This document shows, piece after piece, positions 20,661-35,715 of a stretch of DNA of 64,000 bases (its first letter is position 1; each line of letters begins with the position of its first letter). The translations under genes were made by a program, and so were the position numbers. The stretch comes from Candidatus Syntrophocurvum alkaliphilum (GTDB lineage: Bacteria; Bacillota; Syntrophomonadia; Syntrophomonadales; Syntrophomonadaceae). The DNA lies in contig NZ_CP046457.1 of the NCBI RefSeq assembly GCF_009734445.1, forward strand, positions 1,420,001 through 1,484,000. Direction: 5' to 3'. The notes below the pieces were generated by a model that was given only the letters and a program-made list of their open reading frames with translations, ran no database searches and was not told the DNA's origin.

Positions 20661-21125
20661 TTAATCGTCGTCTTTAACAACATTAACTGAAATAGGTGGG
20701 GTTTCATATTCTATTTTGTTATCATGAAATAATTGAAAAACAACATCAGTTTGTCCTTCTTGTTCACCAATAATGTGAACATGATCTCCATGATTATCAA
20801 AACTTACGATATTTTCATCAGCATCTCTAGCATAGTCTACACGCAAATCATAGTGCTTGCCATCAAGCTCAATCACTACTTCATTTTTCTCAACATATGC
20901 ACCAAGAGAAATATTCTCACCTTTTTGAATCACAGGTAATCCACCATGCCAATGATCAACATGAATATATGCTGTAACTTCGTCAGCACTGCGATAAATA
21001 ATTTCAAAGATTATTCCCTCTTCATCATGATGATGTTCATTTTGCTTTACTGTCTCTTCTACACAACCAACAACAATTAACATTCCAAGTAGTAATACTG
21101 TTAGTAACATAAATCTTTTTTTCAT
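20661..21125 (-). CDS. Histidine-rich lipoprotein, putative metal binding
   Basis: 154 aa. It has a signal peptide with lipobox (LIVVGC, cysteine at residue 21) followed by NEHHHDEEG. Further histidines recur in pairs through the body (HVDHWHGG, GKHYD, NHGDHVHI, LFHD), suggesting a surface metal-binding protein; the metal is unknown. The start is ATG after a run of C/A on the plus strand (GGGGGTATTTTT on the coding strand). No transporter gene is adjacent. An upstream hairpin (21166-21205) lies in its leader, and a cobalamin riboswitch sits 550 nt upstream behind two hairpins. Confidence 0.65.
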   Translation of the reverse strand: MKKRFMLLTVLLLGMLIVVGCVEETVKQNEHHHDEEGIIFEIIYRSADEVTAYIHVDHWHGGLPVIQKGENISLGAYVEKNEVVIELDGKHYDLRVDYARDADENIVSFDNHGDHVHIIGEQEGQTDVVFQLFHDNKIEYETPPISVNVVKDDD

Positions 21126-21640: not shown

Positions 21641-21674
21641 CATTTTTGCGACCAGCCCTTTCACCCGAAGGGGA

Positions 21675-21835
21675 ATGTAGCAACACTCAGGCAGGTCTTC
21701 TGGCTTACAATCATCATCTCCCCCTCCTTCCCAGCTTTTCGCCAGTGGATTGATGGGTTCGACTCATGCTTACAGCGACGGGATCGCACCGGACTTTCAC
21801 CGATTTCCCTCTTCGTCCTTTATGGACACCTGAAT
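21675..21835 (-). promoter_or_regulatory. Cobalamin (B12) riboswitch
   Basis: The minus strand shows the conserved aptamer core: GGAAATCGGTGAAAGTCCG, then CGATCCCGTCGCTGTAAGC, and the B12-box GCCAGAAGACCTGCC at 21689-21704. These are the hallmark blocks of the cobalamin class, which represses B12 synthesis or cobalt/B12 uptake genes when adenosylcobalamin binds. It reads toward lower coordinates, but two terminator hairpins and 490 nt without a gene follow, so no obvious target remains. Confidence 0.93.
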
Positions 21836-21902
21836 GTTTGTTAATTTTTTCCATTTTACCATAATTTTTACATAGTGTCTATTTTTATTTTTCAAAAAAA
21901 GA

Positions 21903-21938
21903 AACCGAGTCAAAAGGAACCGTCCCCTTTGACTCGGT
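21903..21938 (-). repeat. REP palindrome doubling as comEA terminator
   Basis: Perfect arms AACCGAGTCAAA / TTTGACTCGGTT around the conserved tip. The first base of the comEA stop codon lies within the palindrome, and on the minus strand it is followed by a long T run, so it should act as a terminator. Confidence 0.85.
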
Positions 21939-22540
21939 TAACGTACGGTTATGTCATTTTTTATATTATTAAAGATTGCATCACCTATACCACTTACATT
22001 TTTTATTTCTTCTATACTAGAAAAGTTGCCGCTTGAAGTACGATGGTCTATTATTCTATTAGCTAGGGCAGGGCCTATACCAGTTAGGCTTTCTAGCTCA
22101 TTAGCTGTTGCTCTATTTATATTTATTTTTGAGGTACCAATATTAAACCCTGGTGAAAAAGCATCTATTATTTCTTCGTCACTATTTTTTGATGGAACAA
22201 TAATAGTTTCCCCATCAGATAAAAAGCCTGCCATATTTATATGATCAACATTAGCACTTTCTAAGGGAACAGCAAGCTCAACAGCTTCATATATCCGAGA
22301 GTGTTCTTTGAGTTTGTATACTCCTTTATTTTGAACTTCTCCAGTAACATATACTTCAATATATATATCTTCTTCGATTTTTTCGCTTGGCTGTTCTTGT
22401 TCAATAACTAGTTCGTTAAGGTCTAATTCATCTTTATTAGACGAATTAGATATATCACCATATTTAAACCCAGCAAAAAAAACTATTAATAAAACTAGTA
22501 TACCACCAGCTAAAATATATTGCTTTTTGTGTAATTCCAT
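21938..22540 (-). CDS. comEA: Competence protein ComEA
   Basis: Membrane-anchored DNA receptor for transformation. N-terminal anchor at about residues 8-25; SLBB-type domain (YVTGEVQNKGVYKLKEHSRI) at about 60-125; C-terminal helix-hairpin-helix pair (INRATANELESLTGIGPALA, then IEEIKNVSGIGDAIF) at about 138-200. 200 aa, normal. In most Firmicutes it precedes comEC directly; here 9 kb of accessory DNA separates them. The gene ends in a REP palindrome. Confidence 0.94.
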   Translation of the reverse strand: MELHKKQYILAGGILVLLIVFFAGFKYGDISNSSNKDELDLNELVIEQEQPSEKIEEDIYIEVYVTGEVQNKGVYKLKEHSRIYEAVELAVPLESANVDHINMAGFLSDGETIIVPSKNSDEEIIDAFSPGFNIGTSKININRATANELESLTGIGPALANRIIDHRTSSGNFSSIEEIKNVSGIGDAIFNNIKNDITVR

Positions 22541-22949: not shown

Positions 22950-24478
22950 TACTGTAGGAAAAAAACAAAAGAGAATAACTCCCTTGTGATAGAATTTAAG
23001 TTAATCAAAAAAACCAAAAACACACAAGAAAGGAGCTATTCTCATGGATAAAATTATACATGAAATATTGGGAAAAATCATTCGAGATAACACTAAAAAT
23101 TTAGAAAATCTATTTACTAATCATAAGAGTATTTCAGACTTCATATTACAAACAAAGAAAATGTTAGATGAAGTAGGTGTCTTACTTGTAGAACAAGCAT
23201 TTGAATTAGCTGATGAAATGATTAAAGAATCAGTATGGCGTAAAGAAAATTGGTATATACAGCGTAATAATGATAATAAATCACTAACAACAATATTTGG
23301 TGTAGTTAACTACAATAGAACTTACTATAAAAATAAACACGATAACTCTTACAGTTATCTATCAGATGAAGCTTTAGGCATTGACCCACACCAGCGAATG
23401 GATTTATCTATGAAATCACAATTGATTGAAAGAACACTAGATTTATCCTATAAAAAAAGTGGTGAGAGTGTAGCTGAAAGTGTAATCATAAGTGATCAAA
23501 GCGTAATGAATAGTATCAGAGAGTTAGGAAGTGTTGAAAATACTTCAGCTAAGATTACAAAAGAAAAAAAGCAGCTAAAAACACTTTACATAGAAGCTGA
23601 TGAAGATCATGTGCCAATGCAAGATGGAAGTAATAGAGAAATGAGATTAGTATATGTTCATGAAGGTAAAGAAAAAGTTAATAAAGATAGATATAAACTT
23701 ATAAACTGTCGGTATTTTTCAGGAGAATACAATGATAGTGAAGAACTATGGTTAGAAGTTGCAGAATACTTAGATAAAGCCTATGACATAGATAAAGTTG
23801 AAAAAATATACTTGTCAGGTGATGGGGCACAGTGGATTAAAGAAGGTTTGAATTGGATAAAAGGCAGTCTTTTTGTTTTAGATAAATTTCATCTTGCTAA
23901 ATATATAAAAACAGCAACTGGACATATGCCACATTTAGAATCTATGCTATGGAATTATATAAACGAACAAAATAAAATATATGTTGAGGATTTATTAGAC
24001 GCGATTATAAAAGAAACTGAAAGTGAGACTAAGAAAAAAAGTATTAAACAATCTAAAAAATATATACTAAATAACTGGGAAGGAATAAAAAGGCAATATG
24101 ATGCAGACTACATAGGTTGTAGTGCTGAAAGCCATGTAAGTCACATATTATCCTCAAGATTAAGTTCTAGACCAAAGGGTTGGAGTAGAGTAGGTGCAGA
24201 TCAAATGGCAAGATTAAGAGCTTTTAATGCAAACAAAGGCGACATTTATGAATTAATGAAAAATAAGAAAAAAGAAAATCAAAAGGAAAGAAACAAAGCT
24301 AAAATAAGTAAAAAAATAATAAGAAATAAACTAAATACTAGTACTTATGGACAAATAGATAATATTACAATCTTAAATACTGGTAAACGTACTTGGGCAA
24401 GAGAATTCCTTAAATCCATACGTGGTGCTTAATTATCTTTTTAGTAGGGAGATTTCTTTTTTAAATTTTCCTACAGTA
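22950..24478 (+). mobile_element. ISLre2-family insertion sequence
   Basis: 1.53 kb element with terminal inverted repeats beginning TACTGTAGGAAAA (22950 onward, and the complement ending at 24478), enclosing a single transposase gene. No clear target-site duplication is seen in the flanks. It sits 30 bp upstream of the leuS promoter without breaking it. Confidence 0.85.
23044..24432 (+). CDS. ISLre2 family transposase (UPF0236)
   Basis: 462 aa, full length for the family. Recognisable parts are LTTIFGVVNYNRTYYKNK near residue 85, YIEADEDHVPMQDGS with the acidic pair near residue 185, LSGDGAQWIKEGL near 260 with LDKFHLAKYI following, and SHVSHILSSRLSSRPKGWS near the C-terminus. The frame is uninterrupted, so it could be active. 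The start is ATG after AAGGAG. It lies alone between the element's inverted repeats. Confidence 0.93.
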   Translation: MDKIIHEILGKIIRDNTKNLENLFTNHKSISDFILQTKKMLDEVGVLLVEQAFELADEMIKESVWRKENWYIQRNNDNKSLTTIFGVVNYNRTYYKNKHDNSYSYLSDEALGIDPHQRMDLSMKSQLIERTLDLSYKKSGESVAESVIISDQSVMNSIRELGSVENTSAKITKEKKQLKTLYIEADEDHVPMQDGSNREMRLVYVHEGKEKVNKDRYKLINCRYFSGEYNDSEELWLEVAEYLDKAYDIDKVEKIYLSGDGAQWIKEGLNWIKGSLFVLDKFHLAKYIKTATGHMPHLESMLWNYINEQNKIYVEDLLDAIIKETESETKKKSIKQSKKYILNNWEGIKRQYDADYIGCSAESHVSHILSSRLSSRPKGWSRVGADQMARLRAFNANKGDIYELMKNKKKENQKERNKAKISKKIIRNKLNTSTYGQIDNITILNTGKRTWAREFLKSIRGA

Positions 24479-24507
24479 TATTGACACTATCATTAACACT
24501 GTATTTG

Positions 24508-24536
24508 TTGACTTTCGCATAGAATTGTCTTATAAT
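24508..24536 (+). promoter_or_regulatory. leuS leader promoter
   Basis: TTGACT (24508-24513), 17-nt spacer, TATAAT (24531-24536). It drives the T-box leader, the embedded tRNA-Ala and leuS. Confidence 0.85.
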
Positions 24537-24561
24537 TGCTTATGGTAAAAATTTAATAAAA

Positions 24562-24866
24562 AAGGCACAGAACCGGAATAGTAGGTAGTCAAAATCAGAG
24601 AGTCGTTGGGTGGTGTGAAACGACATAAATCTACTGAACTCGCCGGGGAGCTTTACAGGTGAATTTAGTAATCTGTAACGGTAATAACCGTTATCTTTAA
24701 TTAAGTTGGACATTAAGTGGGGCTATGGCGCAGTTGGGAGCGCGCTTGAATGGCATTCAAGAGGTCGTGGGTTCGAATCCCACTAGCTCCACCATTAATA
24801 TATGGTCAAACAGGGTGGTACCGCGGGTAATACTCTCGTCCCTGATAAAGGATGAGGGTTTTTTTG
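24562..24866 (+). promoter_or_regulatory. T-box leader of leuS (interrupted by a tRNA gene)
   Basis: Stem I shows the T-box pattern (AGAGAG followed by GGTGGTGTGAAA) and a specifier loop GAACTCGCC with the leucine codon CTC at 24639-24641, matching the downstream leuS. Stem III is AACGGTAATAACCGTT. The antiterminator T-box AGGGTGGTACCGCG is at 24812-24825, and the terminator pairs CTCGTCC (24835-24841) with GGATGAG (24850-24856) followed by T7. Uncharged tRNA-Leu should allow read-through. Unusually, a full tRNA-Ala gene (24719-24794) lies between stem III and the antiterminator. Confidence 0.93.
24719..24794 (+). tRNA. tRNA-Ala (GGC anticodon), nested in the leuS T-box leader
   Basis: 76 nt with encoded CCA. 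The acceptor GGGGCTA pairs with TAGCTCC and contains G3-U70, the alanine identity pair. D-arm GCGC/GCGC, anticodon arm CTTGA-ATGGCAT-TCAAG (anticodon GGC), T-arm GTGGG-TTCGAAT-CCCAC, discriminator A then CCA. All stems are intact. It has no promoter of its own and should be made as part of the leuS leader. An ATG in it (24725) opens a false N-terminal extension of leuS. Confidence 0.96.
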
Positions 24867-24898
24867 TTTTTTCTGAATCAATTAAGGAGGCGATATTC

Positions 24899-27373
24899 TT
24901 GAGTAAATATGATTTTAAAGCTATTGAAAGCAAATGGCAAAGCTACTGGGAAGAAAATAATTTTTATAAAGTTTCAAAAGATGTTAATAAACCCAAATAT
25001 TATGATTTAGAAATGTTTCCTTATCCATCGGGTAAATTACATATGGGACATGTGCGCAACTATGCTATTGGTGATGTTATTGCGCGTTTTAAGAGTATGA
25101 ATGGTTTTAATGTTCTTCATCCTATGGGGTGGGACGCCTTTGGTTTACCTGCAGAAAATGCCGCTATTCAACATGGACATCCTCCAGCTGAGTGGACTTA
25201 TGAAAATATAGAAAACATGAAAGAACAGCTTAAGACATTGGGTCTTAGTTATGATTGGGACAGAGAAATTGCTACTTGTAGTCCTGATTATTATAAGTTT
25301 ACTCAATGGATGTTTTTAAAACTATATGAAAATGATTTAGCATACAAAAAGAAAGCAGCTGTAAATTGGTGTCCTTCCTGTCAAACTGTTTTAGCTAACG
25401 AACAGGTTGTTGATGGTGAATGCGAGCGCTGTGATAATGTAGTTGATAAAAAGCAATTAGAGCAATGGTTTTTCAAAACTACAAATTATGCAGAACGTTT
25501 ATTAAATGACTTAGAAATATTAGAAGGTTGGCCTGAAAAAGTTAAAACTATGCAGAAAAACTGGATAGGCAAAAGTGAAGGCTGTGAGTTTTCTATGAAA
25601 ATTGAAAATACAGATGAAGAAATATCCGTTTTCACTACCAGACCTGATACTGTTTTTGGTGTTACATATATGGTATTAGCACCTGAACACCCTCTTGTTG
25701 AAAAAGTATCTAAAGGCCTAAAGGAAGAAAGTAATGTAAAAGAGTTTATAAATAAAATGCAGTTTGTTAGTGATGTTGCTAGAACATCTGATGAAACTGA
25801 AAAAGAGGGAGTCTTTACTGGTGCATATGCTATTAATCCATTAAATAATGAAAGAGTTCCTATTTGGATTGCAAACTATGTTTTAATGGATTATGGAACA
25901 GGTGCTATTATGGCCGTACCAGCTCACGATCAAAGAGATTTTGAATTTGCAAGAAAATACGATATTCCAATTAGAGTTGTTATTAAAGGTGAAGAAACAC
26001 CTATAGATGCTGATGAATTAACTGAAGCCTATGCCGAAGACGGTATTATGGTTAATTCAGGACAATTTGATGGTTTAACAGTAGAGGAAGGCAAAAAGCA
26101 AATCATTCGATTTATGGAAGATGAAAAAATAGGTAAAGGTACTATAAATTATAGATTACGTGACTGGTTAATATCTAGACAACGTTATTGGGGAACCCCT
26201 ATTCCCATTATTTATTGTAATGACTGTGGTGCTGTACCTGTGCCAGAAAAAGAACTACCTGTTATACTTCCAACAGATGTTGAATTTAAACCTTCAGGTG
26301 AATCTCCACTTAATTATGTAGAAAGCTTTTACAAAACAACATGTCCTACATGTAATCAAGAGGCGCGTCGCGAAACTGATACTATGGATACATTTGTTGA
26401 TTCATCATGGTATTTCACCCGCTACTGTGATCCAAAAAATGCTAATTTGCCTTTTGATAAAGATATAGCTAATTATTGGATGCCAGTTGATCAATATATT
26501 GGTGGGGTTGAACACGCAATACTCCATCTAATGTATGCAAGGTTCTTTACTAAATTCTTATATGACATTAAAATGATTGATTATCAAGAACCATTTACAA
26601 ACCTCCTTACTCAAGGAATGGTTTTAAAAGATGGTGCAAAAATGTCAAAATCTAAAGGTAATGTAGTTAGTCCTGAAGATATTATTAATAATTACGGTGC
26701 AGATACCGCTAGGTTATTTATACTTTTTGCTTCACCTCCAGAACGAGATCTTGAGTGGAGTGATCAAGCAGTAGAAGGCTGCTACCGCTTTTTAAACCGT
26801 GTATATAGAATTATTAATGAATTTGCGCCAATTATTAAAGATATTAAGCTAGAAAGCACAATTGTACCAAAAGACGAAAGTGCTAAAGAACTAAGATATA
26901 AAGCTCACACAGCTATAAAAAAGGTTACAGATGATGTTGAACAACGCTTTAATTTCAATACAGCTATAAGTGCTGTTATGGAGCTTACAAATGCTCTAAT
27001 CCAATATAAAGATAATAAAGACTATGATTTAAGTGTAGTTAGAGAATCAGCTGAGACTATAGTACTATTGTTAAGTCCATTTACACCACATATTTGTGAA
27101 GAATTATGGGATGTAATTGGAAATAAAGAAAGTGTACATTTACAATCATGGCCTACTTATGAAGAAGATGCATTAGTACAAGAAGAAGTAGAAATAGTTA
27201 TTCAGTTAAGCGGAAAAGTTAGGGATCGTATAAAAGTACCTATAGATGCCTCAGAGAGTGAATTGCGGCAAATTTCTCTAGAAAATGCCAAAATTAAGGA
27301 GTTGACAAAAGATAAAAACATCGTCAAAATAATAGTAATACCACAAAAGCTTGTGAATGTAGTAGCTAAGTAA
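24899..27373 (+). CDS. leuS: Leucyl-tRNA synthetase
   Basis: Class I synthetase, 824 aa. HIGH-type motif [14 protein letters not shown] near residue 40-50, zinc-like cluster CPSCQ...CERC around 160, CP1 editing domain ([20 protein letters not shown] near 240), KMSKS motif ([12 protein letters not shown]) near 580, anticodon-binding domain and a C-terminal LeuS tail. The start is TTG 24899 after AGGAGG; the frame is open further upstream through the leader and tRNA, but that is not coding. Regulated by the T-box leader. Confidence 0.97.
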
Positions 27374-35616: not shown

Positions 35617-35635
35617 TACACCTCACATTCTATAA

Positions 35636-35715
35636 GACTCGCCAGCAAAGGCAGGTTTTATATTAAAACCATTTTTAGCCCGTACTGTGCGGTTGCAAAA
35701 ATGTGCAACCCAAAT
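35636..35715 (-). promoter_or_regulatory. L21 leader (ribosomal-protein autoregulatory RNA)
   Basis: The 5' UTR of rplU contains GGTTGCA/TGCAACC, CCGCACAGTACGGG and GGTTTTAATATAAAACC stems, then the TGCCTTTGCTGGCGAG segment. This resembles the L21 leader seen before rplU in Firmicutes, which is thought to let L21 control its own operon. Assigned by position and motif; no covariance model was run. Confidence 0.65.

What the first reader, a model, noticed from the sequence alone, without database searches (positions are those of the whole stretch)
24562..24898. A complete tRNA-Ala gene sits inside the leuS T-box riboswitch
Seen: between T-box stem III and the antiterminator lies a 76-nt tRNA-Ala(GGC) with all arms, G3-U70 and encoded CCA; promoter, CTC specifier, AGGGTGGTACCGCG box, terminator and leuS surround it. 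Known: T-box leaders bind a separate uncharged tRNA, here tRNA-Leu, to choose between antitermination and termination. Inference: the tRNA would be made on every initiation, even when leuS is attenuated, and RNase P/Z cleavage would cut the sensor away from the antiterminator, so processing could compete with regulation. The design would tie alanine tRNA supply to a leucine-starvation switch. I know of no described nested arrangement like this, but I could not search.
Basis: partly seen in the sequence, partly recalled or inferred. Interest (0 to 1): 0.88.

Follow-up and report, generated by a model that had tools for sequence, protein, structure and literature searches.

The report
tRNA-Ala gene capping a T-box riboswitch
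The RNA switch that turns on the leucyl-tRNA synthetase gene during leucine starvation carries inside one of its own hairpins the cell's only gene for a different tRNA (alanine, GGC), and this arrangement recurs in Clostridia, Chloroflexota and several other bacterial phyla, so one transcript seems to serve as both a sensor and a tRNA precursor.

Summary
A complete tRNA-Ala(GGC) (24719-24794) lies inside a T-box leader (24559-24846, Rfam 124.9 bits) upstream of leuS. The flanks form stem III itself, bounded by the RRRNG and AA motifs of the discriminator. The same nesting occurs in 31 of 37 family genomes, and at least 45 of 398 phylum genomes. It is also in Chloroflexota (14 of 151) and in records titled Thermomicrobiota, Armatimonadota, Coprothermobacterota and Caldisericota. 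It is always Ala-GGC, and leuS follows (or an operon containing it) wherever the contig reaches. Stem III arms covary across the tRNA (77% paired against 58% with shuffled partners). The nested gene is the only Ala-GGC gene in the complete genome, and in nearly all nested genomes checked. Other leuS T-boxes of the phylum have small stem III loops instead. Best explanation: a dual-purpose leader. One promoter makes a transcript that always contains tRNA-Ala, upstream of the attenuator; the T-box decides only whether leuS follows; maturation later removes the tRNA. Processing and expression are inferred, not shown. No description was found in the open-access library.

The parts
24508..24536 (+). 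Promoter of the leader: TTGACT, 17-nt spacer, TATAAT
   Evidence: 11 of 12 matches; the only + strand promoter-like site in 24400-24960; similar sites 120-330 nt upstream of the tRNA in 99 of 125 nested loci, only 7 in the 120 nt next to the tRNA.
24559..24846 (+). T-box leader (RF00230), tRNA-Ala nested in it
   Evidence: 124.9 bits, model 1-219 complete, E 2.9e-27.
24639..24641 (+). Specifier codon CTC (Leu), in GAA-CTC-G
   Evidence: CTC in 97 nested leaders by simple pattern and visible in most of the rest listed; tRNA-Leu(GAG), ending ACCA, is encoded at G000:C1:1620719-1620804.
24703..24708 (+). Purine motif 5' of stem III (RRRNG type, here AAGTTG)
   Evidence: Read; motif defined in PMC7583486 and PMC7778990; conserved in the nested leaders.
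24709..24716 (+). Stem III, 5' strand (GACATTAA)
   Evidence: Pairs with 24795-24807 around the tRNA; covariation across 100 distinct arm pairs.
24719..24794 (+). tRNA-Ala, anticodon GGC, G3-U70, CCA encoded; the genome's only Ala-GGC gene
   Evidence: compensatory acceptor and anticodon stem changes among relatives.
24795..24807 (+). Stem III, 3' strand (TTAATATATGGTC)
   Evidence: fold; followed by the conserved AA at 24808-24809.
24812..24825 (+). T-box AGGGTGGTACCGCG, 5' side of the antiterminator; TGGT pairs with tRNA ACCA
   Evidence: T at the fourth bulge position in 132 of 134 nested leaders.
24835..24843 (+). CTCGTCCCT, 3' side of the antiterminator, shared with the terminator
24832..24866 (+). 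Intrinsic terminator (attenuator), stem 24832-24859 and T-run
24899..27373 (+). leuS, leucyl-tRNA synthetase, 824 aa, TTG start after AGGAGG
   Evidence: TIGR00396.

Best explanation
This is a dual-purpose leader: a leucine-sensing transcriptional T-box whose stem III is capped by a functional tRNA-Ala(GGC). One promoter drives the whole unit. Shown by sequence and comparison: a complete T-box with Leu specifier, a complete tRNA in the loop of stem III, paired and covarying stem III arms, usually single-copy tRNA status, and broad conservation. Inferred: each transcript yields tRNA-Ala, because the tRNA precedes the attenuator. tRNA-Leu(GAG) binds the specifier and T-box bulge. If uncharged, the antiterminator forms and leuS is transcribed; if charged, transcription stops about 70 nt after the tRNA. 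The tRNA folds as an independent domain on stem III, so the discriminator can work. RNase P and 3' nucleases later cut at the unpaired spacers and release the tRNA. That also strips stems I and II from the leuS mRNA. Terminated leaders are therefore not waste but tRNA precursors.
For: T-box and tRNA both complete at one place. Own genome: 38 tRNAs, a single Ala-GGC, the other Ala being TGC. In 40 nested phylum genomes searched, 39 match an Ala-GGC pattern; 37 have exactly one hit, the nested one, and one further genome has a second hit that does not look like a tRNA. Stem III arms 77.2% paired over 6 positions against 57.8 +/- 1.4% (maximum 62.2% in 2000 shuffles), with many pair types. tRNA stems change by compensation, and G3 is present in 134 of 134. 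Base -1 is T in 98 of 133 against about 19% T upstream, which fits RNase P preference (preference from own knowledge; counts). Spacers of mostly 3-9 nt remain between stem III and the tRNA on the 5' side. Promoter-like sites lie upstream of the T-box, rarely next to the tRNA. Homologous leuS T-boxes in other families have small stem III loops at the same place. Where the T-box was lost (G006, G013), the tRNA survives alone with a promoter-like site.
Against: No expression, processing or binding data were available. In the window itself stem III has a mismatch or bulge, and its perfect run is only 3 bp. 20 of 134 leaders have fewer than 4 perfect pairs by the anchor method. The full-length minimum-energy fold does not show the T-box architecture, as is common for single-sequence folding. 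Some leaders far from Bacillota fall below Rfam's T-box cut-off (46-78 bits against 93), so their switch function is less certain.
Confidence: 0.7

Rival explanations
1. Regulated maturation: the state of the T-box (tRNA-Leu bound or not, stem III clamped or loose) changes access of RNase P and 3' nucleases to the nested tRNA, so tRNA-Ala(GGC) output responds to leucine charging, and processing in turn limits how long the switch can act.
For: The tRNA sits in the discriminator hairpin, which is part of the aminoacylation sensor (PMC7583486). Its ends lie close to stem III, with short spacers. The pairing is very old and always Ala with Leu.
Against: No data on processing. T-box decisions are made during transcription, probably before most processing. 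The flexible spacers suggest access in either state.
Confidence: 0.2
2. Frozen passenger: a tRNA gene landed once in a permissive loop of an ancestral leuS T-box. Because it was the only Ala-GGC gene, it could not be lost; the nesting itself has no regulatory value. (Compatible with the molecular steps of the best explanation; it differs on why the nesting is kept.)
For: Stem III loops vary freely in ordinary T-boxes (PMC7583486). Single-copy status explains retention. T-box and tRNA can separate without loss of the tRNA (G006, G013).
Against: Long retention across phyla, when a second tRNA copy elsewhere would free it, hints at some benefit.
Confidence: 0.4
3. The tRNA is a non-functional structural cap or pseudogene that only stabilises stem III.
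For: It folds on stem III.
Against: Usually the only Ala-GGC gene of the genome; all arms, G3-U70 and T-loop kept with compensatory changes; CCA directly encoded in 102 of 134.
Confidence: 0.03
4. Artefact: misassembly or chance pattern.
For: Some nested records are draft metagenome bins.
Against: Closed single-contig genome, named strains, conserved across phyla with covariation.
Confidence: 0.005

Closest known systems
Transcriptional T-box riboswitch with stems I, II, IIA/B, III (RF00230), leuS type
   Same: Stem I with AGAGA-type motif, Leu CUC specifier, pseudoknot stem IIA/B region, RRRNG-stem III-AA, T-box bulge TGGT, terminator.
   Different: The apical loop of stem III is a whole tRNA gene for another amino acid; no such case was met in the papers read (PMC2494555, PMC7778990, PMC7583486).
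T-boxes with insertions in stem III or helix A2, and tandem T-boxes (reviewed in PMC7583486)
   Same: Extra domain inserted in the discriminator.
   Different: Those insertions are described as having unknown structure and function; here the insert is a recognisable, single-copy tRNA gene.
tRNA genes cotranscribed with mRNAs and released by RNase P (own knowledge)
   Same: tRNA embedded in an mRNA transcript, to be cut out.
   Different: Here the tRNA is within the regulatory fold, upstream of the attenuator, so its synthesis should not depend on read-through.
T-box leader mRNA processing in Bacillus (own knowledge; processing of the B. subtilis glutamyl-tRNA synthetase transcript is in the reference list of PMC2494555)
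   Same: Cleavage of the leader may shape the stability of the synthetase mRNA.
   Different: The predicted cutters here are tRNA maturation enzymes, at tRNA ends.

Membership tests
T-box riboswitch (RF00230) | Covariance-model match over the full model | tested here: met
   Window 124.9 bits, cut-off 93, positions 1-219; nine distant or sister loci also above cut-off, ten more at E 5e-7 or better but below cut-off.
T-box riboswitch (RF00230) | Specifier codon matching the amino acid of the downstream gene | tested here: met
   CTC (Leu) upstream of leuS.
T-box riboswitch (RF00230) | T-box bulge UGGN complementary to the cognate tRNA 3' end | tested here: met
   TGGT; tRNA-Leu(GAG) ends ACCA.
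T-box riboswitch (RF00230) | RRRNG-stem III-AA discriminator motif | tested here: met
   Near-standard in the window (AAGTTG, one extra T); AA at fixed distance from GGTGG in 131 leaders.
T-box riboswitch (RF00230) | Alternative terminator and antiterminator | tested here: met
   CTCGTCCCT shared; terminator with T-run.
T-box riboswitch (RF00230) | tRNA-dependent antitermination | not testable with these tools
   Needs a transcription assay.
Functional tRNA-Ala | All arms, anticodon GGC, G3-U70, A73 | tested here: met
Functional tRNA-Ala | Sole gene for its anticodon in the genome | tested here: met
   38 tRNAs, one Ala-GGC, one Ala-TGC.
Functional tRNA-Ala | Expressed, matured and charged | not testable with these tools
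   Needs RNA data.
Two-codon T-box (second specifier GCC for the nested tRNA) | Conserved GCC overlapping the specifier loop | tested here: not met
   The G of GCC is A in 9 leaders (CTCACC), and other leaders read CTCGTCC or CTCGCTC; CC pairs in the base of stem I.

The most novel reading that the evidence does not exclude
The nested tRNA is a working part of the switch: leucine charging, sensed by the T-box, controls maturation of the only tRNA-Ala(GGC), so one RNA couples leucine status both to leuS transcription and to decoding of GCC/GCU alanine codons.
Probability: 0.18. Interest if true: 0.93.

Novelty: new variant of a known kind. Interest (0 to 1): 0.82.

Why it matters
It shows a regulatory RNA that contains a probably essential structured RNA gene inside its sensing domain and appears to have kept both jobs across several phyla. 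It breaks the usual split between a riboswitch leader, discarded after use, and a stable-RNA gene: attenuated transcripts would still be productive. It gives a natural test of how modular the T-box discriminator is, since stem III tolerates a whole tRNA as its cap, and of how RNase P processing and cotranscriptional regulation share one RNA. It also warns annotators: the tRNA interrupts the T-box model, and an open frame runs from inside the tRNA into leuS.

Tried and rejected
(1) Misassembly: rejected. (2) Chance motif match: rejected; control patterns read backwards gave no hit in 398 genomes. (3) GCC after CTC as an Ala specifier for the nested tRNA: rejected, not conserved. (4) Own promoter for the tRNA between stem III and the tRNA: no room in the window, and promoter-like sites in the 120 nt before the tRNA in only 7 of 125 loci. 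(5) Other nested tRNA types: the collection scan was open to any tRNA T-loop. 160 of 164 ARAGORN-positive loci are Ala-GGC; the four others (Ser, Gly, Pro, Lys) showed no CGTCCC partner and no leuS. (6) My first leuS query was out of frame; redone. (8) RNAfold of the full leader was not informative. Subscription papers were not covered, so absence is not proof of novelty.

Full report
OBSERVATION. The window holds one tRNA, tRNA-Ala(GGC) at 24719-24794. Rfam places a complete T-box leader at 24559-24846 (124.9 bits) with the tRNA as an internal insertion. A near-consensus promoter (24508-24536) and one terminator (24832-24859) bound the unit. The next gene, TTG 24899 to 27373, is leuS. The finding is correct, with one refinement: the tRNA lies within stem III, not after it. 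Rfam's stem III strands are on both sides of the insertion, and folding 24700-24812 pairs GAC and ATTAA with TTAAT and GTC around the tRNA (z -2.5).

SPREAD. blastn of the leader against 60 relatives gave matches that span tRNA and T-box throughout the family. ARAGORN and tblastn show tRNA-Ala(GGC), T-box and leuS in that order. My count is 31 of 37 family genomes nested, with one more (G022) interrupted by an element. In the phylum sample, 46 of 398 genomes match a pattern of any tRNA T-loop followed by a T-box core; one of these (G067) has no tRNA, so 45 is the count, with no hits to the reversed control. The pattern is strict, so this is a lower bound: G065 is nested but was missed. Of these, 95 carry tRNA-Ala(GGC) beside a T-box core: Bacillota 42, Chloroflexota 35, Thermomicrobiota 8, Armatimonadota 3, Coprothermobacterota 2, Caldisericota 1, and a few oddly titled bins. 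Chloroflexota: 14 of 151 genomes match the pattern. Ten distant or divergent loci tested at relaxed threshold all match T-box at E 5e-7 or better.

SPECIFICITY. The nested tRNA was always Ala-GGC. Wherever the contig reached far enough, the downstream gene was leuS, or a branched-chain aminotransferase-like or acyl-CoA-synthetase-like gene followed by leuS in some cases (identified by sequence resemblance). The specifier is CTC. The cognate tRNA-Leu(GAG) is encoded in the genome and ends ACCA, matching TGGT. Only one of the ten T-boxes of this genome carries a tRNA.

STRUCTURE AND SELECTION. 134 distinct nested leaders share the layout RRRNG - stem III 5' - spacer - tRNA - spacer - stem III 3' - AA - NN - GGGTGGTACCGCG. 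With anchors chosen without regard to pairing, the arms are 77.2% paired over six positions. With 3' arms shuffled among leaders the mean is 57.8% (sd 1.4, maximum 62.2%), and several positions show four or more standard pair types. Shuffling does not remove relatedness, so the significance is not a strict probability, but the register control (77% in register against 51% and 36% one off) agrees. The tRNA itself shows compensatory acceptor and anticodon-stem changes and keeps G3 everywhere. Base -1 is T in 98 of 133. Both RNAs are thus under selection at once.

COPY NUMBER. The complete genome has 38 tRNAs, with Ala-GGC once (nested) and Ala-TGC once, next to Ile-GAT. In 40 nested genomes, 39 matched an Ala-GGC pattern. 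37 had a single hit, the nested one. G359 has a second hit that does not look like a tRNA, and G379 a second one on another contig.

COMPARATORS AND NATURAL BREAKS. Other phylum members have leuS T-boxes with a small stem III hairpin where the tRNA would be (G049, G050, G060). In G006 and G013 leuS has no T-box and tRNA-Ala stands alone behind a promoter-like site. In G022, T-box stem I and an intact tRNA are followed by a phage-integrase-like reading frame (Pfam Phage_int_SAM_4, E 2e-5, just below its cut-off), while another contig holds 47 bp of the tRNA's 3' part, the T-box core and leuS. An element seems to have integrated in the nested tRNA and cut the sensor from its gene. G037 keeps only a degraded 3' tRNA part before the T-box core.

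HISTORY. A LeuS tree of nested loci separates mostly by phylum (9 changes of label, least possible 6, shuffled mean 26.5). That fits an old arrangement inherited largely by descent, with some possible transfers. Un-nested LeuS were not included, so single origin is not tested.

MECHANISM. Shown: anatomy, conservation, covariation, usual single copy. Inferred: every initiated transcript that passes the tRNA yields a tRNA-Ala precursor, whatever the leucine state, because the tRNA lies before the attenuator; the T-box then decides on leuS. Stem III is required for aminoacylation sensing (PMC7583486), so the tRNA must be tolerated as its cap. Excision by RNase P and 3' nucleases would open the cap but could leave the short stem III duplex. 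Whether processing is timed, blocked or informative for the switch is open.

LITERATURE. Ten searches of the open-access library and text searches in T-box surveys, databases and reviews (PMC2494555, PMC7778990, PMC7583486, PMC4919913) gave no mention of a nested tRNA gene. The review notes unexplained insertions in every T-box domain. Subscription papers were not searched, so priority is likely but not certain.

Noticed in passing
L044 (G022:C109) 1112-1644 and L049/L301 (G022:C41): An integrase-bearing element appears to have inserted into the nested tRNA-Ala of a relative: one contig has T-box stem I, intact tRNA and an integrase-like frame; another has a 47-bp copy of the tRNA 3' part, the T-box core and leuS. 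The sensor is thus cut from leuS.
   Followed up: partly
L304 (G037:C9): Upstream of leuS only a degraded 3' part of tRNA-Ala precedes the T-box core; stem I and the tRNA 5' half are missing. A possible second case of disruption.
   Followed up: partly
L251 (G006:C14) 1483-1558; L253 (G013:C174) 1556-1631; L259 (G032) 2296-2371: In three family members tRNA-Ala(GGC) stands alone behind a promoter-like site without a T-box. In G006 it lies beside a gene resembling, by eye, the window's helix-hairpin-helix protein, but Pfam gave no hit for its first 70 residues.
   Followed up: partly
window 24725-27373: An open frame starts at an ATG inside the tRNA and runs in frame through the T-box into leuS (882 aa), which could mislead gene callers.
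   Followed up: no
window 23044-24432: ISLre2 family transposase directly upstream of the leuS leader promoter, between it and a helix-hairpin-helix protein gene (21938-22540, minus strand).
   Followed up: partly
window 21673-21848 (minus), gene 20661-21125 (minus): Cobalamin riboswitch whose next gene in the same direction is a small histidine-rich lipoprotein-like protein without a Pfam family above cut-off; possibly a cobalt- or corrinoid-related protein.
   Followed up: no
window 35625-35704 (minus): Ribosomal protein L21 leader (RF00559, 56.8 bits).
   Followed up: no
L139, L161 (Coprothermobacterota, Caldisericota): Nested leaders match the T-box model over only about 237-239 nt including the tRNA, so stem I appears shortened; T-box scores are 70-73 bits, below the Rfam cut-off.
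   Followed up: partly
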